This document shows, piece by piece, positions 29,096 to 39,962 of a DNA stretch of 64,000 nucleotides. Position 1 is the stretch's first letter. The number at the start of each line of letters is the position of its first letter. The notes under the pieces were generated by a model. The model ran no database searches and had not been told where the DNA came from. It saw nothing but the letters and a program-made list of their open reading frames with translations. Made by a program: the position numbers and the translations under genes. Origin of the DNA: Desulfoscipio gibsoniae DSM 7213 (GTDB taxonomy: Bacteria > Bacillota > Desulfotomaculia > Desulfotomaculales > Desulfallaceae); contig NC_021184.1 in assembly GCF_000233715.2 (NCBI RefSeq), positions 4,522,001-4,586,000 on the forward strand, read 5' to 3'.

Positions 29096-29407
29096 ATGGC
29101 CAAATCAGAATTACGGCAAGAATGGGAAACCCGGATAGCCGATTTTAGAGCAAGCGGGCAAAGCGGAGCAGCTTGGTGCGCAGCCCATAATATAAGACCT
29201 AATCAACTATGGTATTGGCTAAAAAAGATTAAATCCGCAGAGAATCCATCAATTACGCAGACGCAGTGGGTGTCAGTGGAGATAAATGAGTCCGACCCCA
29301 CCGGAAACGGATTATTGATTAAAGTAGGTCCTGCGGTTATAGAAGTGCAACCTGGCTTTAATCCGGCATTACTCAAAGAAGTAGTGCAAACACTTAAAGT
29401 ATGCTGA
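29096..29407 (+). CDS. tnpA: IS66 accessory protein TnpA
   Basis: 103 residues. WETRIADFRASGQSGAAWCA and NQLWYWLKKIK are the helix-turn-helix region of IS66 TnpA. The start follows GGGGGGATT. Stop overlaps the tnpB start by seven bases, suggesting coupled translation. Confidence 0.85.
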   Translation: MAKSELRQEWETRIADFRASGQSGAAWCAAHNIRPNQLWYWLKKIKSAENPSITQTQWVSVEINESDPTGNGLLIKVGPAVIEVQPGFNPALLKEVVQTLKVC

Positions 29408-29760
29408 CCAACACTGGCCTGGAACGGGTTTACCTGGCCTGCGGCAGCACCGACTTGCGTAAATCAATTGACGGATTGGCGGTTTTAGTAAAAGAAGCAT
29501 TTGCACTGGACCCGTTCTCTACCTGCATCTTTGTGTTCTGTAACCGGAAACGCGATAAACTCAAGATCCTCCAGTGGGAGCATAATGGTTTTTGGCTTCA
29601 TTATCGCCGGCTGGAGAAAGGAAAGTTTCAATGGCCGGCCAAAGATAGTGCGGGAACGGTTACATCTGTTAGCCACCGTGAGTTACGTTGGCTATTGGAT
29701 GGTCTATCGCTCAATCAACAGCAAGCCCATCCCGAGGTTACGGCAAGAACAATTTTATGA
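29401..29760 (+). CDS. tnpB: IS66 accessory protein TnpB
   Basis: 119 residues. VYLACGSTDLRKSIDGLAVL, then CIFVFCNRKRDKLKILQWEH and GFWLHYRRLEKGKFQWP are the conserved IS66 Orf2 motifs. Needed for transposition in studied relatives; biochemical role unclear. Confidence 0.9.
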   Translation: MLTNTGLERVYLACGSTDLRKSIDGLAVLVKEAFALDPFSTCIFVFCNRKRDKLKILQWEHNGFWLHYRRLEKGKFQWPAKDSAGTVTSVSHRELRWLLDGLSLNQQQAHPEVTARTIL

Positions 29761-29826
29761 CTAAAAACATGGGATAAATCCTTGATTTTAAAGGGTTTTC
29801 ATGGTTATATATCGAATATTAACCAT

Positions 29827-31392
29827 ATGAACAGCACAGCTAAAATAGTTGAAGAACTTCAAAATAAATGCACTGAGTTGGAGCAAAAAAATGCTGAATT
29901 AATGGCTAAAGTCAGATGGTTTGAAGAACAGTTTCGTCTAAGCCAACAGCGTCGTTTCGGTCGCTCCAGTGAACAGAGCCAACCGGAGCAATTACAGCTG
30001 CAGTTTTTTAATGAGCCCGAAATAGAAGCTAAACCGCCTTCAGAGGAACCTAGCGTTGAGGAAATTACCTACCGCCGCCGTAAGAAACAGGGACACCGTG
30101 AGCAGCTGCTGGAAGATTTGCCGGTGGAAACCATCGACTACTATCTACCTGCCCAAGAGCAGGTATGTTCATGTTGCGGTGGACCATTACATGAAATGAG
30201 CACCGAGGTCAGGCAAGAGCTTAAGATTATTCCGGCCCAGGTAAGTGTCGTCAGACATGTACGTCACGTCTACGCTTGCCGCCGCTGCGAACAAAAAGAC
30301 ACCAAAACCCCTATCGTGACTGCACCTATGCCGGCGCCTGTACTGCCGGGGAGTCTGGTTTCCCCTTCCGCTATGGCCCACATCATGACCCAAAAGTATG
30401 TTGAAGGTATGCCGCTTTATCGTCAGGAACAGCAATTGGCCCGTCTTGGAATAGGGCTGTCCCGTCAGACCTTGGCCAATTGGATGCTCCAGGGTGCCAA
30501 CAGATGGCTTCGCCCACTTTACGATAGGATGCATGAGCATCTGTTGAAACAAGATATCCTGCATGCCGATGAGACTACTCTGCAGGTGCTGCATGAACAA
30601 GGCCGGTCAGCAGGAAGCACCTCTTACATATGGCTATACCGTACCGGGCGGGCAGGGCCGGCAATGGTTCTTTACGACTACCAAACGACCCGGGCAAGCA
30701 AGCATCCGCGCCGGTTCTTAGCCGGCTTCAAGGGTTACTTGCATGTAGACGGCTATGCCGGTTACAATGGATTGCCGGACGTGACTCTGGTTGGATGCTG
30801 GGCCCATGCCCGGCGTAAGTTTGATGAAGCGCTAAAAGCCTTACCAGCTGAACAGCGCGGTGCAGTAGTAGCCGCCAAAGAGGGGCTGAATTTCTGCAAC
30901 CGACTTTTTGCTATAGAACATGAGCTTCGCGAGGCCACTCCCGAGGAACGCCATGTAGCCCGCCAAGAGCGCAGCCGTCCATTGCTAGAGGCTTTTTCAG
31001 CATGGCTAAAATACCAAAGTCCTAGAGTGCTGCCTAAAAGCGCTTTTGGTCAAGCTATTCATTACTGCCACAACCAATGGAACAAGCTCGCAGCCTTCCT
31101 GCAAGACGGACGACTGGAGCTGGATAACAATCGAAGTGAGCGTTCGATTAAACCGTTTGTGATCGGACGCAAAAATTGGCTATTTGCCAACACCCCGCGT
31201 GGCGCCAATGCCAGTGCAACGATTTACAGCATTGTTGAATCGGCTAAGGAAAATGGCTTAAATCCGTTTAGCTATCTGCAATATCTTTTTGAAAGGCTTC
31301 CCAATATAGATATCGAAAACCGAAATGCCCTAGATGAGCTACTTCCCTGGTCGGTTGCTTTGCCTTCGACTTGTCGAGTAAACAATAAATAG
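29827..31392 (+). CDS. tnpC: IS66 transposase TnpC
   Basis: 521 residues from ATG 29827. Contains an N-terminal leucine-rich coiled coil ([20 protein letters not shown]), the [11 protein letters not shown] segment, a zinc-binding motif ([14 protein letters not shown]), and the DDE domain with [20 protein letters not shown] and the Glu-containing [20 protein letters not shown]. Full length, no frameshift; probably active. Confidence 0.9.
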
Positions 31393-33685: not shown

Positions 33686-34442
33686 TCACATCCCATTCTC
33701 TTGCGCTGCGATGCGGATGGTCTCAGCATCAATCTGTTCGGCTTTCCTCATATAGCCGTGCAGCAAGGCGTGGGTCCCCAGTTTGTTGATCAGCCGGGGA
33801 TAACCTTGGGTGCAAGCGGCAATCGCTTCGAAAGCCGCATCGGTAAAGATGGGATGCTTGGCTCCGGCAAGGGTCATGTGGCTGGGCGAGCGGACGGTTA
33901 TGGTTCAGCGCCAGCCTGTCCCGCAAATAAGGCAAACCACAAAGCAGCAGAATAAACGGGTTGTGCGAGTCCATTTGGAAGTTGAATAGCAAATTTAAAT
34001 CGCTCAGGAAAACATCCTTAGCCATCTGCATTTCATCCAGAATAAAAACCGGCGTGACCTTCCGCTCGTGAAACAAAACCGTAATCGTTTGTTGAATCTG
34101 GCGAAACAAATCGACCTTGCGATTTTTTGGTTCATCTCCAAGGCCGAAGGCCAGTCCCCGGTAAAAGTCGTTCACTGATCCTGTAGAGAGTGGAAAATAG
34201 ACAACTTTGTACAGCGATTTATTCAATGATTCAGTAAATACACGCAGCGCATAAGTTTTCCCAGCTCCTGGTTCACCAACGAAAAGTCCCATGCCGCGCA
34301 CCTGTTTCATGCAATTCAAGCACCCTAGCGCTTCCTGATGCGGCGTAGAAACATAGGCATCGGACACCTTCAACTCCTTGGAGAACGGGGCGGCAGCCAG
34401 GGAATAAAAAGCTTTATACACCGTCCCCACCCTCCTTCGCAT
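33686..34442 (-). pseudogene. Transposon-associated AAA ATPase (ExeA/TniB-like), left copy, internal deletion
   Basis: Start region YKAFYSLAAAPFSKELKVSD, Walker A GEPGAGKTYALRVF, Walker B VFILDEMQM and FNFQMDSHNPFILLLCGLPYLRDRL match the ATP-binding helper proteins that work with a DDE integrase in two-gene transposons. After LALNHNRPLAQ about 20 residues of the family are missing and the frame shifts near 33882; the lost frame resumes as MTLAGAKHPIFTDAAFEA and ends at 33686. So the gene is dead. Its start overlaps the integrase end by 29 bases. Confidence 0.7.
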
Positions 34443-35012
34443 GCAGTTCTTTAAAAGATAAGGAAGAACGCTGGCGCTTTACATGAGCGTTGTCGTGGAA
34501 GCTGACTTCCACAGCTTGAGCAACTACTTTGCCATCCTCATAAAGATGAACGCCGCTTTCGTCATAACGCAGTTCCACTTTCTGTCCCGCAAAAATATCG
34601 GGTACCTCATACAGTCGATTTTCAAGGGAAAAGGTGGCATCATGTTTGACCTTGCGAAAAGCGCGCTTGAGAAATACGGAATCGAGAGCTAAAGGATCAT
34701 CCACGGTGCGAATACTGTCTACTTGTGACAAATATACTTCTAGCGGCATCCGGCCATCCAGCGAGGCATGTGGTTTGCGGTGGTAATCTTCCTCAAGCCA
34801 TCTCCAGAATCGCTCATTAAGCTCATCCAGCGAGGAGACCGGACTTGCTTTGAGCAGCGTGTAGAACCTGGTTTTGCACGTGCGAAACATACGTTCTATT
34901 TTACCCTTGGCCTGGGGATCATAGGCTTGGGTATGTAATAGTTGAATCCCCAGAGAGGCACAAGCAAATTGCATAATCTGGGAACGAAAGATTTTTCCAT
35001 TATCAAAGCTAT
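34414..35012 (-). pseudogene. DDE integrase, C-terminal part, left copy
   Basis: In frame from the central palindrome the product reads FDNGKIFRSQIMQFACASLG, then DPQAKGKIERMFRTCKTRFY and PHASLDGRMPLEVYLSQ. This is the last Asp-region and the catalytic Glu (GKIERMFRT) of an rve integrase plus its C-terminal domain. The N-terminal half, with the first catalytic Asp, is absent. Truncation falls exactly at the palindrome at 35009-35028. Confidence 0.7.
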
Positions 35013-35028: not shown

Positions 35029-35725
35029 TATCGATAATGCCCGGGTATTTCGTTCTCAGCACCTAAAGCGCATCGCGGCGGAACTGGGCTTTAGCATTAA
35101 ACATAGTCGGGCCGGGCAACCCCAAGGCCGCGGTCGGATTGAAAGATGGTTCAGAACGGTAGCCGAGAAATGTGAACCTCTGCTAAGAGAGCAGACTGAA
35201 TCCGGCAAAGTGGCTACGCTGTATGAGGTCAATAGCTTCTTTACCGCCTGGCTGGAGAGGCGCTACCATAGTCGCCGACACAGCACGCTGAAGATGAGCC
35301 CTCGGGATGCCCTGGAAAAGGCCTGTGCCAGCCATCTGAACATGTCTCGTCCTGTTGAGCCGGCTACTGTGCATGAGGCCTTTTTATGGCGGGAAAACCG
35401 GGTAGTGAGCTCACTTGGAGCCGTAAAGATCTACAGCAATCTCTACGAGGTGGAGGAGAGTTTGCTTGGCAAGACCGTCGAACTGAGATTTAACCCTTAC
35501 GATCTAAAGCGCATTCTGGTTTACTTCAAGGGCGTTTACCGGTACGAGGCCCGTCCCTACCAGATGAAAAACTTCACCGAAAAACGCGTTAAAGAGCGTC
35601 AGACCGACAGTCATAAAGCACTGGAAAAAGCTATGCAGGCTATTGTTCGGGAACATAAAGACGAGATTAAAGAACGCTCCGGCCTGTCCTTTGCCAAGGC
35701 ACTGGAGGTGAAGCACGATGAATAG
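35024..35725 (+). pseudogene. DDE integrase, C-terminal part, right copy
   Basis: In frame: SIDNARVFRSQHLKRIAAEL, then QPQGRGRIERWFRTVAEKCE with the catalytic Glu, FFTAWLERRYHSRRHSTLKM and a C-terminal domain ending LSFAKALEVKHDE. The N-terminal half is missing, cut at the palindrome at the same residue as the left copy. Sequence differs clearly from the left copy, so this is not a recent duplicate. The stop overlaps the ATPase start, as in an intact two-gene transposon. Confidence 0.7.
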
Positions 35726-36517
35726 CCCTTATTTCTCTTTTAACCGGGAGCCTTTCTCCCGGGAATTATCCCCTAAGGAAGTGTTCGTGTCCAAAGGACA
35801 CCGTGAACTCCTGGCCAGACTCAGGCATGTCATCAAGACCGGCTTTTAGCGGTGATTACAGGGCAAGTTGGTTCCGGCAAATCCACGGCTATCCGGTCTG
35901 TTATGCAATCCCTGGAGGCTTCTCGTTATCGTTATATTTACTTGGCTAGTTCACAGCTTTCACCGGCGGAGTTCTACAAGAGCTTACTCTACCAGGTTAA
36001 TATCCGGCCAAGCAGGGGTTTCTCCGAAAACAAACGCTTAGTGGCACAGGCTATGCTGGAATTACACCAGAAAGGAATAAAACCGGTAGTGGTGATCGAC
36101 GAGGCTCAGGAGCTAACGGTGCAGATGCTCAGCGAATTTCGGTTTGTTCTTAACTATCAACCAGATTCCTTTTCACCTTTAATGGTTGTACTTGCCGGTC
36201 AGCCCCAGTTGGCCGAAATACTGCGCCTTCAGGTTTTGGAATGCATCCGCCAGAGGATTAATGTACACTATCGCTTACCGTGCTTGGGGGAAGACGAAAT
36301 TGCCGCTTATATCTTGCATCACCTAAAAGTGGCCGGGCTGGACAAGCAAATATTTACGGATGCGGCAGTACAGCTTATCTATCAGTTTTCCAAAGGCATT
36401 CCTCGGCGCATTAACAATATATGCCGGTATGCCATTGTAGCGGCAGTCGTGGCCGATAGCCCGACAATTGACGCAGACGCGGTACAAAAAGGCCTCGAAG
36501 ACGATGAATTAATTTAA
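35718..36517 (+). pseudogene. Transposon-associated AAA ATPase (ExeA/TniB-like), right copy, frameshifted
   Basis: ATG 35718 gives NSPYFSFNREPFSRELSPKE and GHRELLARLRHVIKTGF, then a stop at about 35847 caused by a base loss. The next frame continues as VITGQVGSGKSTAIRSVMQS (Walker A), VVVIDEAQELTVQMLSEFRF (Walker B) and LVVLAGQPQLAEILRL-type sensor, ending with a winged region and ADAVQKGLEDDELI. Apart from the single frameshift the gene is whole. Confidence 0.75.
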
Positions 36518-36660: not shown

Positions 36661-37121
36661 TTACCGCCAAGGAGCGTGAACCGCTACAATATGGGATACA
36701 CTATACGTTCCAAGGAAGAGCCAGCCTTCCGGATGTTTCGGGCGGTACCTCTTCCAGTATTCTCGTAAGACACTAAGGCAGGTTGCCGAAAGGACGGTGT
36801 ATCGATCCTTACCCCCTTTGCCACCTTCTACAAATAAGCGCATGTTTTTTGAATCGATATGCTGCATTTTGAGTGCCGCTGCCTCACTTACACGTAGACC
36901 TGAGCTATATACAACCGTCAGCATGGCTTTGTGTTTAATGTTTTCGCAGCTCTCAACAATTGAGAATACTTCTTCTCTTGTTAAAACCTCCGGAAATGTT
37001 TTACGTTTTTTCTGGCGTGGAATTTGAAGATAATTAAGAGTACGATTAAGGGTTACGGCAAAGAGAAAGCGTATAGCTGCACTATAAGTATTAACAGTTC
37101 CAGGCAAGGCTTTTTTTTCGG
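36661..37121 (-). pseudogene. Tyrosine recombinase, central part (split by ISL3, 3' end lost)
   Basis: The part from ALPGTVNTYSAAIRFLF to VVYSSGLRVSEAAALKMQHI (catalytic Arg) and FVEGGKGGKDRYTVLSATCL (catalytic Lys) belongs to a tyrosine recombinase. It continues the N-terminal piece at 39776-39962 once the ISL3 element and one target repeat are removed: EKKALPG is then in frame. The catalytic HxxR, His/Trp and Tyr part is gone; after WLFLG the sequence ends in TYSVSHIVAVHAPWR. The gene was therefore broken twice. Confidence 0.75.
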
Positions 37122-37179
37122 GTTCTTCCGCACTTTTGATGCTAATTAGCAATGCTTATAATACAAGTTATTTTCAGGT

Positions 37180-38757
37180 TTATAGAGTTAGAAGAACCCG
37201 TTTGCGAAGTAAATCAAACCTTGCTCTGCCAAACATTAAACGTTTGATTAGTTTCAAACGGTTATTGATTCCTTCTACAGGCCCCTGGCTCCATGACTCA
37301 GTCAAGCCAGCATAGACAGCATCATAATCCTTATTTAGCGAAACGGCAAATTTCTTGAGTTCAGGAATTCCACTTTTATGTACGGCATTTAACCATGCCG
37401 GGAGAGTATGTCCAGCTCGACAACGCACCATAGTATGAAATTGGTGAACAAGAGCATACCCCCGTTGCAACTCAGGAATATCCGCAAGGAGTTTAGTTAA
37501 TGTTCTTGTTGCTTTTCGGGGCAATTTATGTAATCGTGTCAAAAACCAGTATTGAAGCTTTCGTGGTGCAATTGCTTTGACCTGTGTTTTAGGCTGCTCC
37601 TCATCTTTATGATCAATGCTCTTTTGTTCTCTTATCCAGCGGGCTACAGTAGGTCGAGATCCCTGGTAGCCCATAGTTAGAATCTCTTCAAACAATATAC
37701 GACCATTGAGACAGCCATCAGCTAATCGTTTTTGGAGGTGGCCTATGTAGTTATCCAACAGTGTTTTGGAAGGTATACGCTGGGCCGCTTGCGGGCATTG
37801 TTCTACAGAAGCATATTTGCGAACAGTATTACGGCTTAGTTTTAAGATTCTTGCAATTTTTCGAAGGGACAGGCCTTGCTTTTTTAGGTTTTGAATCTCA
37901 TCAAAACGCACCTGCCGGTTATACTGACCCAGTGTTGGTTCGGTTGAGGAATTATCTGTGACCTGATTACGTGGTTCCACTGCTGAAACGGTTTGTGACA
38001 ATTTGGGCTGAAGCCGGTGAAACCAACGTTCCAAAGCCTCACCAAGATTTTTTAGCAAATGCCAGCGATCAGCAATTTGCTGTGCATTTGGTGCTCCCAT
38101 TTGAGCTGCTTTAGCATAAGACTGGGAACGGTCACGGCTAATTATTTCCACGCCCGGGTGGCCCTGCAACCATTGTTGTAACGTAGATACTTGCCGGTCA
38201 GGTAATAGGTCAACTACCTTATGTGTTTCCAAGTCAACAAGAACAGTACCATAGGAATGTCCTTTTCGCCATGCCCAATCATCTACACCTAACACACGCG
38301 GGGTAGGCATCTTAGGTTCCGGGGTTGCACGGATAGCACGCAAAACAGTATCAGCACTGGTAGATAATCCTAAATTGCGGGCAAGGCGGGTGGCGGCCTC
38401 AGCGCTGCTAGCCCTGCCTAAAGCGGATAACGTTTCGGTAAAACGTGCGGTGCGCCGTCCATGGGCCGGGACTAGTTCAGGTATTCGCTCACAAAAGATC
38501 CGTTGTTGACAGTCCCTATCAATACAGGCGAATCGGCGAGCAGTAAGACGGATTATCACCGGAGTGCCACACCAGGCTAAATCGCGCAAAGTTCGTTTAT
38601 AAAAGCTTCTGATTTTATTTGAAGCTTTGCCACAAACAGGGCATGTTGCAAAATGACTAGTCATCTCCATTACCAAGTGGATAGTCCCGGCTTCCTGCTT
38701 CATTACAACTAATTTAAGACCATCGGCCAAAGGCATAATCGGCAGGGAATTACTCAT
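37180..38757 (-). CDS. ISL3-family transposase
   Basis: 525 residues. N-terminal zinc finger (ATCPVCGKASNKIRSFYKRT, then CIDRDCQQRIFCERIP), catalytic Asp in VLGVDDWAWRKGHSYGTVLV, second Asp in EIISRDRSQSYAKAAQMGAP, helix-turn-helix insert (LRKIARILKLSRNTVRKY), and C-terminal WSQGPVEGINNRLKLIKRLMFGRA with the catalytic Glu. All as in ISL3. Full length. Confidence 0.9.
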   Translation of the reverse strand: MSNSLPIMPLADGLKLVVMKQEAGTIHLVMEMTSHFATCPVCGKASNKIRSFYKRTLRDLAWCGTPVIIRLTARRFACIDRDCQQRIFCERIPELVPAHGRRTARFTETLSALGRASSAEAATRLARNLGLSTSADTVLRAIRATPEPKMPTPRVLGVDDWAWRKGHSYGTVLVDLETHKVVDLLPDRQVSTLQQWLQGHPGVEIISRDRSQSYAKAAQMGAPNAQQIADRWHLLKNLGEALERWFHRLQPKLSQTVSAVEPRNQVTDNSSTEPTLGQYNRQVRFDEIQNLKKQGLSLRKIARILKLSRNTVRKYASVEQCPQAAQRIPSKTLLDNYIGHLQKRLADGCLNGRILFEEILTMGYQGSRPTVARWIREQKSIDHKDEEQPKTQVKAIAPRKLQYWFLTRLHKLPRKATRTLTKLLADIPELQRGYALVHQFHTMVRCRAGHTLPAWLNAVHKSGIPELKKFAVSLNKDYDAVYAGLTESWSQGPVEGINNRLKLIKRLMFGRARFDLLRKRVLLTL

Positions 38758-39631
38758 TTTTCATGAGCACCTCTCGGAAATTTCCGGCCAATGGATAGAG
38801 ATAGATGTCTTTTATAGGCACCCGGGAAGAATTATGGTGACGGTCGTTACGACCTCGTCCCTGCGTTTTACCTACATAAACCCAGTTACTAGCCTGATAG
38901 CTGATACCCTGAAAGCGGCGTGCCTCAACAAATGTTTCCAGTAAATAGACAGGATGACCGTATTTGTCGTACCAATCTTTACTAATACGGCGGATAATTT
39001 GACTCAGAATATGGCTAGCCAGGTAACGTACTTTCACCCAGGGTAGGATTAGAAAACGTGTATTATTAGTAATTAGATGAATATTTGTTTTACGAGTTCG
39101 GGCATCCCAGCCAATAAATTGATCTCTGTTAGAACATGCCCAGGCGGCTGCACCAAATAATAGGCAGGCCAAGGGATTTTGTTTATAATCCCAAACCATG
39201 TATTTCATGTTTTCACCGACTGTGCCGCTCCACCCCAGGTAATGATATTGATCAAAAAAACACTTTAAAAGGCTAAGCTCGTCTTTACCTTCAACTGGCT
39301 TTATCTGCAAAGGGAGGACGTTATCAAGTGCACTGGTGATACTGGATTTTAAATGGGGTATGTAATTAATAACCTTTTTTTCATTACCCTTTCGGCCCCA
39401 TTGTTGGGAAAGGGGTAAAGTTAGGAAGCCGTGCTTTTCCAGTTTCTTAAGAAGAGCAAGACAGGCCATATCCTTCAACTGGCCTTTTGCGTTTCGCCAG
39501 TCCCAAAGGGCACAAAGCTCTCTGGATAACCGTGTACGCAGCCAGGTAGGATTAGAGTCCATAAGTTCCTTAATGAACTTAATGTCTTCAGTAGTTATTT
39601 TCCGTTCTTGGATAATCAATATTTTGCTCAT
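38750..39631 (-). CDS. DruA-like DUF4338 protein inside the ISL3 element
   Basis: 293 residues. LLKCFFDQYHYLGWSGTVGE, MKYMVWDYKQNPLACLLFGA, ACSNRDQFIGWDARTRKTNI, LILPWVKVRYLASHILSQII and PVYLLETFVEARRFQGISYQASNW are the conserved DUF4338 blocks found in DruA, the defining protein of Druantia anti-phage systems. DUF4338 proteins also occur as passengers of transposons. The stop overlaps the transposase start by eight bases, so both are translated together. Other Druantia genes (druB-E or druH) are absent, so a defence role alone is uncertain; a role in transposition is as likely. Confidence 0.8.
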   Translation of the reverse strand: MSKILIIQERKITTEDIKFIKELMDSNPTWLRTRLSRELCALWDWRNAKGQLKDMACLALLKKLEKHGFLTLPLSQQWGRKGNEKKVINYIPHLKSSITSALDNVLPLQIKPVEGKDELSLLKCFFDQYHYLGWSGTVGENMKYMVWDYKQNPLACLLFGAAAWACSNRDQFIGWDARTRKTNIHLITNNTRFLILPWVKVRYLASHILSQIIRRISKDWYDKYGHPVYLLETFVEARRFQGISYQASNWVYVGKTQGRGRNDRHHNSSRVPIKDIYLYPLAGNFREVLMKNE

Positions 39632-39775
39632 GGAAGGATTTTAGCATAATAACAATAAGAAGACCAGCATTGTCTTATGAAGTATACATGAGCTATTTAA
39701 GCATGATTGTTGTTTTTAGGATATAACGAACTATAAAGGTGATTATGGGCCTTGTATCAAAAGTGCGGAAGAACC

Positions 39776-39962
39776 TTTTTTCGTTGATTAAATACCATAA
39801 AAAATTGCGGATATCATATTCATTTAGCTGTTCCACCGGGCGGTTGCAATGTTCAAGAAAAATCCGTGCATTTAATGTATAACTCTCAAGTGTGTTTTTT
39901 GACAGTCCTCTAAGCAGAATGTCTTCTTTCATCCGTAGTAAAACCTGTTCTTTATTTTCCAT
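39776..39962 (-). pseudogene. Tyrosine recombinase, N-terminal part
   Basis: MENKEQVLLRMKEDILLRGL, SKNTLESYTLNARIFLEHCN and YDIRNFLWYLINEK form the core-binding (SAM-like) domain of a tyrosine recombinase. It is followed by the ISL3 right end; the rest of the gene continues at 37121. The ATG follows a GAGGAGAG site. Confidence 0.75.

What the first reader, a model, noticed from the sequence alone, without database searches (positions are those of the whole stretch)
37122..39775. ISL3 element carrying a DruA-like gene
The element has both ISL3 ends, an 8-bp duplication (TTTTTTCG), an intact transposase and, overlapping its start by eight bases, an intact DUF4338 (DruA-family) gene. DruA defines Druantia defence systems, normally with large helicase partners that are absent here. 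This raises the question whether DUF4338 began as a transposition helper later recruited to defence, or whether it is mobile defence cargo.
Basis: partly seen in the sequence, partly recalled or inferred. Interest (0 to 1): 0.7.

Follow-up and report, generated by a model that had tools for sequence, protein, structure and literature searches.

The report
Jumping gene with a DNA-modifier partner
A small bacterial jumping gene carries, next to its transposase, a protein that looks like the DNA-marking enzyme of phage Mu rather than a phage-defence part, and related proteins accompany several other kinds of jumping genes, so marking DNA may be an overlooked part of how they move.

Summary
The element is real: 37121-39775, 2,655 bp, perfect 20-bp inverted ends, 8-bp duplication, inserted in a tyrosine-recombinase gene, with an intact ISL3 transposase and an intact DUF4338 (PF14236) gene overlapping it by 8 bp. 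A second copy (97.7% identical) lies at a different site in Sporotomaculum syntrophicum. The DUF4338 gene is under stronger purifying selection than the transposase. It is not a stray Druantia gene: it falls on the transposon side of a deep split from 11 Druantia-type DruA proteins. Relatives lie directly before, after, or fused to transposases of at least five IS families, often with a 4-nt stop/start overlap. The predicted fold is GNAT; phage Mu Mom, a DNA-adenine modification enzyme, is the best structural match, narrowly. Profile comparison supports Mom clearly (95.6%, E 1.2e-8), and a serine invariant in 62 of 62 relatives aligns with the residue mutated in the inactive Mom crystal. Druantia-type DruA shows none of this. 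Best reading: a transposase-coupled, Mom-like DNA-modifying accessory protein. Homology and coupling are shown; catalysis and its role in transposition are inferred.

The parts
37121..39775 (-). ISL3-family insertion sequence with two genes (druA-like, then transposase)
   Evidence: perfect 20-bp ends and 8-bp duplication; 97.7% identical full copy in L145 with a different duplication
37113..37120 (.). target-site duplication TTTTTTCG, left copy
39776..39783 (.). target-site duplication TTTTTTCG, right copy
37121..37140 (.). terminal inverted repeat (end beyond the transposase gene)
   Evidence: I1, 20 nt 100% complementary
39756..39775 (.). terminal inverted repeat (end before the druA-like gene)
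   Evidence: I1
37180..38757 (-). ISL3 transposase, 525 aa, intact
   Evidence: NF033550 E 6.6e-113, 377.5 bits; PF01610 E 2.3e-39
38750..39631 (-). DUF4338/PF14236 protein, 293 aa, intact: Mom-like GNAT-fold protein of the transposon branch; its stop overlaps the transposase start by 8 bases
   Evidence: PF14236 E 1.3e-35; AlphaFold model pLDDT 90.7; Mom first structural match, Z 14.7; hhalign of its family to Mom 95.6%, E 1.2e-8
38774..39325 (-). predicted GNAT/Mom-like domain, residues 103-286
   Evidence: range spanned by the structural matches; 168 aligned columns with the Mom family
39014..39016 (-). codon of Ser206, invariant in 62 of 62 relatives; aligns with the Mom serine that is alanine in crystal 8bv8
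38870..38908 (-). motif GISYQASNWVYVG, residues 242-254 (G-x-x-Y-x-A-x-N-[WF]-x-x-x-G, close to the Mom motif)
39407..39631 (-). N-terminal domain, residues 1-75, possibly winged-helix (weak)
   Evidence: model pLDDT 81.9; structural matches include many winged-helix/HTH proteins but Z at most 5.0
36661..37120 (-). 3' part of the tyrosine-recombinase gene interrupted by the element
   Evidence: PF00589 E 1.7e-16; uninterrupted 212-aa frame when flanks are joined
39784..39962 (-). 5' part of the same tyrosine-recombinase gene
   Evidence: PF13495 E 1.1e-11

Best explanation
This is an ISL3 insertion sequence with a built-in accessory gene. The accessory protein has a Mom-like GNAT domain and perhaps a small DNA-binding head. 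It is probably made together with the transposase by translational coupling. It most likely attaches an acyl-type group to a DNA base, as Mom does to adenine, and acts together with the transposase on element or target DNA during the transposition cycle (for example marking ends, target or the excised intermediate, or limiting re-use of a just-moved copy). SHOWN: element anatomy, presence of the gene throughout the close IS lineage, purifying selection, recurrent close linkage or fusion to transposases of distinct families, homology to Mom with a matching serine. INFERRED: coupling of translation, catalysis, the chemical group, DNA as substrate, the step of transposition affected.
For: Element integrity and an independent second insertion. 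In the order, the four close ISL3 relatives with sequence at that spot have the gene: G023 intact, G024 at a contig end, G091 and G021 decayed. dN/dS (NG86) against L145: 0.0073/0.0552 for druA, 0.016/0.0558 for the transposase; against L146: 0.092/1.02 (77 codons) and 0.179/0.864. Of 71 relatives with at least 700 nt beyond the druA stop, 62 have a same-strand frame within 600 nt; 17 of 62 overlap by exactly 4 nt and 35 of 62 lie at -30 to +60. Of 63 such frames, 51 are IS66; of the other 12, ISL3, ISAs1, IS1634 and one ISKra4 pass their family cut-offs. druA fused to ISAs1 transposase. Complete ends and exact 8-bp duplications around druA plus transposase in 5 of 63, control 0 of 189. Mom: first of 999 re-aligned chains; hhalign 95.6%, E 1.2e-8, against 0.9% for 19 general GNATs and at most 0.5% for 20 column-shuffled Mom alignments; PHROG Mom 54 of 62 and Pfam Mom 18 of 62 at E 0.01, best 1.1e-9 in Pfam; Druantia-type DruA 0 of 10 for both. 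Ser206 and His130 62 of 62, acidic 236 in 61 of 62; Ser206 and His130 also 5 of 5 in the fused ISAs1 forms.
Against: No biochemical evidence. The lead of Mom over other GNATs in the structural alignment is only 1.0 Z (14.7 against 13.7). Foldseek's 50 listed rows, headed by SpeG, do not show Mom; the family profile found no Mom among PDB sequences; one Mom sequence alone gives 1.6%. The window protein itself stays below Pfam's Mom cut-off (13.9 against 27.1 bits). The invariance of residues 242-250 and 190-198 is partly built in, because the relatives were fetched with patterns from those stretches. Fused ISAs1 versions have Gly where Asn249 stands (5 of 5). The 29 other ISL3 loci examined and the IS66 set in this window do without the gene, so it is not generally needed for transposition. 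The ISL3 association is rare: one of 63 partners in the survey.
Confidence: 0.5

Rival explanations
1. Anti-restriction shield. As with phage Mu Mom, the protein modifies DNA so that the element and its surroundings survive restriction when transferred to a new cell; it does not take part in transposition itself.
For: Closest characterised relative is Mom, whose modification protects Mu DNA from restriction (PMC6483171, passages).
Against: Overlap with and fusion to transposases point to joint action with the transposase. IS-type genes are nearly absent from the elements that travel between cells: 0 of 50,697 phage records, 2 of 72,556 plasmids with each of two queries, 4 loci in 3 IMG/VR contigs, of which the two contigs with a recognised neighbour show IS66.
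Confidence: 0.22
2. Protein acyltransferase. The GNAT domain acylates the transposase or a host protein and so regulates transposition.
For: GNAT fold with many protein and small-molecule acetyltransferases close in structure; tight pairing with transposases.
Against: Sequence-profile similarity is to Mom and not to 19 general GNATs of the host. Partners include distinct transposase families, so a single conserved protein site is hard to see.
Confidence: 0.13
3. Non-catalytic DNA-binding helper that uses a dead GNAT fold as a scaffold for the transposase.
For: Possible winged-helix head (weak). Fused ISAs1 forms have lost one conserved Asn.
Against: Ser206 and His130, which lie outside the fetching patterns, are invariant in 62 of 62 sequences.
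Confidence: 0.1
4. Defence cargo: an orphan Druantia DruA moved by the IS.
For: Same Pfam family; Druantia-type DruA and IS-type proteins align over 115 columns, 96.5%. Proteins with DruA-like structure are reported in six Synechococcus phages (PMC12774648, passage), so the fold does occur in phage conflicts.
Against: Separate side of a 100%-supported split; Druantia-type DruA have Trp for His130 (11 of 11) and Gly or Ala for Ser206 (11 of 11) and no Mom match; no Druantia genes in the element; close linkage to transposases in several IS families.
Confidence: 0.05

Closest known systems
Phage Mu Mom (Pfam PF25680, PHROG 1384; PDB 8bv8)
   Same: Same fold and detectable homology over 168 columns; matching H-Y, R, S, acidic, G-x-x-Y-x-A-x-N positions; carried by a transposing element
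   Different: About 100 extra N-terminal residues; about 16-17% identity; in an IS beside the transposase instead of a late phage gene; the element holds no third gene, so no Com
Druantia type I DruA (PF14236, PADLOC PDLC00002)
   Same: Same Pfam family; 115 alignable columns
   Different: No DruB-E in the element; deep split; Ser206 and His130 replaced in Druantia-type DruA; no Mom match in Druantia-type DruA
ISL3 insertion sequences
   Same: Transposase above cut-off, inverted ends, 8-bp duplication
   Different: An extra overlapping gene; the 29 other ISL3 loci checked in the phylum lack it
IS66 elements with accessory genes tnpA and tnpB
   Same: Multi-gene IS in which small genes precede the transposase; most IS-type DUF4338 genes found are in IS66, 18 of 51 after a tnpB-sized frame
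   Different: Different transposase family; DUF4338 is not among the standard IS66 genes as I recall them
Eukaryotic KDZ transposons with TET/JBP DNA oxygenases (recalled, not looked up)
   Same: A transposon carrying its own DNA-base-modifying enzyme
   Different: Unrelated enzyme, transposase and hosts

Membership tests
ISL3 insertion sequence | ISL3-family DDE transposase | tested here: met
   NF033550 377.5 bits, cut-off 180
ISL3 insertion sequence | terminal inverted repeats and 8-bp target duplication (8 bp recalled as the family's size) | tested here: met
   20-bp perfect ends, TTTTTTCG twice; AGAATTGT around the L145 copy
Druantia defence system | DruE helicase and DruB-D (type I) beside DruA | tested here: not met
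   Element holds only two genes. A DruE/YprA-like frame lies about 740 kb away and the genome's only PF14236 match is the one in the element
Druantia defence system | DruA of the Druantia-type clade | tested here: not met
   25 bits on PDLC00002; split from 11 Druantia-type DruA at SH-aLRT 100
Druantia defence system | phage protection | not testable with these tools
   needs an experiment
PF14236 (DruA/DUF4338) domain family | match above the curated cut-off | tested here: met
   123.4 bits, cut-off 27
Mom family of DNA modification enzymes | homology over the Mom domain | tested here: met
   hhalign of its family 95.6%, E 1.2e-8, 168 columns, with controls; structural Z 14.7
Mom family of DNA modification enzymes | match above Pfam's curated cut-off for PF25680 | tested here: not met
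   13.9 bits against 27.1 for this protein; 18 of 62 relatives reach E 0.01. So: a relative of Mom, not filed as a curated member
Mom family of DNA modification enzymes | conserved active-site-like residues | tested here: met
   Ser206 aligned with the mutated Mom serine, His130-Tyr131, Arg192, acidic 236, Tyr245, Asn249; the Mom column with invariant Glu98 is Asn189 here, not matched
Mom family of DNA modification enzymes | modifies adenine in DNA | not testable with these tools
   needs mass spectrometry or long-read kinetics

The most novel reading that the evidence does not exclude
A large class of bacterial insertion sequences, built on several distinct transposases, carries its own Mom-type DNA-base-modifying enzyme as a working part of transposition (a self-applied chemical mark), and the DruA subunit of Druantia defence is a descendant of this enzyme line that lost the active site.
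Probability: 0.33. Interest if true: 0.87.

Novelty: new variant of a known kind. Interest (0 to 1): 0.68.

Why it matters
DUF4338 is now labelled after a phage-defence system, so orphan IS copies risk being read as defence genes. If they are Mom-like DNA modifiers coupled to transposases, a chemical mark on DNA becomes a recurring, unstudied component of IS biology, and a stock from which a defence subunit may have been drawn. Named isolates with complete elements (Sporotomaculum syntrophicum FB, Alicyclobacillus sp. ALC3; non-pathogens as far as I recall) make it testable at once.

Tried and rejected
Druantia reading: rejected on tree, motifs and context. 'Druantia-type' is my label for proteins with high DruA scores (Pfam 228-477 bits in the 10 scanned). 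Of four such loci whose neighbours I scanned, L284 has DruB-E and L285 has DruE; in L282 and L290 the scanned neighbours showed no Dru protein but HerA-like and Mko-like matches, so not all 11 are proven Druantia systems. General GNAT reading: profile against 19 host GNATs gave 0.9%; that set is small and diverse, so this control is modest. Mom not seen in Foldseek's 50 listed rows, in PDB sequences with the A3 profile, or with a single Mom sequence in hhalign (1.6%).

Phage and plasmid cargo: looked for and nearly absent. N-terminal domain: only weak winged-helix matches, Z at most 5.0, left open. Attempt to find ends of 63 relatives: only 5 found under the strict rule. Rooting the family tree with Mom was not tried because of the very long branches. 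Literature: no paper found that links DUF4338 to insertion sequences; searches were (0 papers hold 'DUF4338' and 'ISL3'; 3 hold 'DUF4338'), on Mom. For most papers only the listing was seen; passages were seen of PMC8565338, PMC12774648, PMC10853773, PMC7251935, PMC7824862, PMC12458937 and PMC6483171. This covers only the open PMC library held here; ISfinder could not be consulted.

Rows dropped before counts: the genome-contig scan kept the best 80 of at least 588 relatives and fetched them by two peptide patterns. The profile A3 holds the window protein and 61 of the 64 loci proteins of 280-315 aa; L057, L069 and L086 were left out by me. The Mom set A5 is Mu Mom plus 13 of 14 fetched phage regions (L200 had no annotated gene), out of 284 records matched. 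19 of 24 host GNAT loci passed a length filter. 9 of the 80 were shorter than 255 aa and left out of the tree; L009, L010 and L239 were left out of the Druantia-type set as short or unmatched. The 20 regions were chosen by hand from the list; 6 of 43 order loci had no IS-type frame. Of 12 non-IS66 neighbours, 10 were classified one by one. The ISL3 phylum search matched 105 of 398 genomes but only 30 loci (the window's own and 29 others) were examined.
Full report
WHAT IS THERE. The window contains one complete insertion sequence at 37121-39775. Its ends are perfect 20-bp inverted repeats and it is flanked by TTTTTTCG twice. It interrupts a tyrosine-recombinase gene; joining the flanks gives one uninterrupted 212-aa frame. 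On the minus strand it carries a 293-aa PF14236 protein (38750-39631; E 1.3e-35) and, overlapping it by eight bases, a 525-aa ISL3 transposase (37180-38757; 377.5 bits against a cut-off of 180). The genome (4.86 Mb, one contig) has one match to each family. A relic of a related right end of about 115 bp lies elsewhere at 80% identity. The host shares a genus code with G023, whose contig carrying the second copy has the same length (481,389 bases) as the Sporotomaculum syntrophicum contig found by name.

THE GENE BELONGS TO THIS IS. The Sporotomaculum copy is 2,655 bp long, 97.7% identical, and lies between a different 8-bp duplication, AGAATTGT. So the two-gene unit has moved as such. In the order, 7 of 113 genomes hold a transposase match at E 1e-40 or better. 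Apart from the window, DruA-like sequence adjoins it in G023 (intact), G024 (transposase 72% identical, the last 77 druA codons 86% identical at protein level, then the locus ends), G091 and G021 (both decayed). G088 ends about 100 nt beyond a partial transposase, and G033 (33% identity) has none. Substitution rates show stronger constraint on druA than on the transposase: NG86 dN/dS 0.0073/0.0552 and 0.016/0.0558 against L145; 0.092/1.02 (77 codons only) and 0.179/0.864 against L146. More distant ISL3 elements do not have it: of 30 ISL3 loci examined in a 398-genome phylum search, only the window's own carries it (flanks of up to 1.5 kb, some shorter; mostly under 45% identical, one 76% over 92 residues). 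The IS66 gene set in this same window (29096-31392) has no frame of 100 aa or more between tnpB and tnpC.

RELATED GENES ACCOMPANY DISTINCT TRANSPOSASES. A scan of the species-representative genomes found at least 588 relatives; the best 80, from many phyla, were kept. Of 71 with at least 700 nt beyond the druA stop, 62 have a same-strand frame of 150 aa or more starting within 600 nt; 17 of these 62 overlap the druA stop by exactly 4 nt and 35 of 62 lie at -30 to +60 (starts are the first ATG, so some long overlaps are artefacts). Of 63 such neighbours (one more, with slightly less room), 51 are IS66 transposases. Ten of the other 12 were classified one by one: ISAs1 (254 bits, above cut-off 70), IS1634 (264, above 100), ISKra4 in three loci (one above cut-off 205, two below), IS701-like (124, below 170), IS1182-like in three loci (far below cut-off 270), one unclassified fragment. 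The last two of the 12 are the ISL3 copy L034 (374 bits) and L048, which by elimination is the IS4 match at a gap of 475 nt and may be a chance neighbour. In 18 of 51 IS66 cases a tnpB-sized frame ends within 160 nt upstream of druA, giving tnpB-druA-tnpC. In the host's own order the gene also lies downstream of IS66 tnpC (L012-L016, L018) and is fused to ISAs1 transposase in 10 of 37 loci that have an IS-type frame. Inverted ends with exact 8-bp duplications that enclose both genes were found in 5 of 63 loci (L034, L039, L042, L066, L071), against 0 of 189 in mismatched controls. Two viral-collection loci also show IS66 with a 4-nt overlap.

WHAT THE PROTEIN IS. The AlphaFold model (62 sequences, mean pLDDT 90.7, pTM 0.75) has a GNAT domain at residues 103-286. 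The structural re-alignment puts phage Mu Mom (8bv8) first of 999 chains: Z 14.7, rmsd 3.9, 170 residues, 16% identity; the next is NatF at 13.7, so the lead is modest. Foldseek's own list is headed by SpeG acetyltransferases and does not show Mom in 50 rows. Sequence evidence is clearer. A profile of 62 IS-type proteins against 14 diverse phage Mom proteins gives 95.6% probability, E 1.2e-8, over 168 columns. The same profile gives 0.9% against 19 GNATs of the host genome and at most 0.5% against 20 column-shuffled Mom alignments. Against a single Mom sequence it gives 1.6%, and against PDB sequences it found no Mom. Taken singly, 54 of 62 proteins match the PHROG Mom family and 18 of 62 the Pfam Mom family (best 1.1e-9) at E 0.01. 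The window protein itself reaches only E 4.7e-5 and 0.042.

ACTIVE-SITE CORRESPONDENCE. Crystal 8bv8 is titled an inactive mutant S124A; over the 231 aligned residues its sequence differs from Mu Mom only at Ser114 of my numbering. In the profile alignment this serine falls on Ser206 of the window protein, which is invariant in 62 of 62 relatives. Other matched positions are His130-Tyr131 (Mom His48-Tyr49), Arg192 (Arg101), acidic 236 (Asp139; 61 of 62 acidic), Gly242, Tyr245, Ala247, Asn249 and Gly254 (Gly146, Tyr149, Ala151, Asn153, Gly158). The relatives were fetched with patterns from residues 190-198 and 242-250, so invariance there is partly built in; Ser206, His130 and acidic 236 lie outside those patterns. 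Mom's Glu98 has no counterpart (Asn189). The literature that I read in passages calls DUF4338 a GNAT domain (PMC10853773), describes Mom as a GNAT-superfamily enzyme that acylates N6 of adenine (PMC7824862), and says that it protects Mu DNA from restriction (PMC6483171).

RELATION TO DRUANTIA. Genuine Druantia exists nearby: a member of the same family (G013, L284) has DruB, DruC, DruD and DruE1 matches beside its DruA, and L285 has DruE1; two further loci with high-scoring DruA (L282, L290) showed no Dru protein among the neighbours scanned. Eleven Druantia-type DruA align with the IS-type profile over 115 columns (96.5%) but not over the Tyr-x-Ala-x-Asn part, and not with Mom (1.5%). None of 10 scanned matches the PHROG or Pfam Mom families. 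They carry Trp for His130 (11 of 11) and Gly (10) or Ala (1) for Ser206. In a 100-row tree (quick method, SH-aLRT only) they are cut off from the 89 other proteins by a very long branch with 100 support. The ISL3 pair sits among mostly IS66-associated rows, with L035 and L039 nearest (support for the enclosing fork 82), which suggests that the gene changed transposase partners. Because IS-type proteins and Mom share the motif, the Druantia line probably lost it. This is parsimony, not a rooted tree.

HOW IT PROBABLY WORKS. Overlapping frames and fusion imply that the accessory protein and the transposase are needed together. A Mom-like enzyme beside a transposase suggests a base modification on element or target DNA during transposition. 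Catalysis, DNA as substrate and the transposition step are inferred. The main rival is a restriction shield as in Mu. Against it speak the close tie to transposases and the near absence from phages and plasmids: 0 of 50,697 phage records and 2 of 72,556 plasmid records with each of two queries, 4 loci in 3 viral-collection contigs. The two plasmid records are from one organism; one match is annotated as an ISAs1 transposase and the other as a DUF4338 protein. DruA-like structures in six Synechococcus phages are reported (PMC12774648, passage); those are compared there with Druantia type I DruA.

NOVELTY. The IS, the PF14236 family and Mom are known. The combination is, as far as the searches show, not described in the open library held here; ISfinder was not available. 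I rate it a new variant of known kinds: a Mom-like protein adopted as a transposase partner in several IS families.

Noticed in passing
window 29096-31392: An IS66 gene set (tnpA, tnpB, tnpC) without the DUF4338 gene, a natural contrast in the same window.
   Followed up: partly
G000:C1:4072925-4073039 (L004): A relic of the right end of a related ISL3 copy, about 115 bp, 80% identical, with an end repeat that has 4 mismatches; sign of earlier activity in this genome.
   Followed up: partly
G000:C1:3815281-3819840 (L301-L303): DruE/YprA-like helicase frame (reported 1510-aa frame, with stops in one matched stretch) about 740 kb from the window; the genome's only PF14236 match is the IS gene.
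   Followed up: no
L284 (G013): Druantia type I with DruA, B, C, D and E in a genome of the same family as the window's host.
   Followed up: partly
L282 (G094), L290 (G239): High-scoring DruA proteins whose scanned neighbours show no Dru partner but HerA-like or Mko-like matches: possibly other defence architectures with DruA.
   Followed up: no
G151:C8, G318:C25, G022:C1:1022041-1023444, G049:C121: PF14236/DruA matches inside much larger open frames (about 670-1250 aa), neither classical DruA nor IS type.
   Followed up: no
window 33729-34974 (-) and 35210-36517 (+): Frames that look like two oppositely oriented remnants of transposase/AAA-ATPase pairs beside the interrupted tyrosine recombinase; only 35852-36517 was scanned (AAA), the rest is by eye.
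   Followed up: no
L081, L109, L112: Three loci in which druA precedes an IS1182-like transposase by exactly 32 nt each, forming their own clade.
   Followed up: partly
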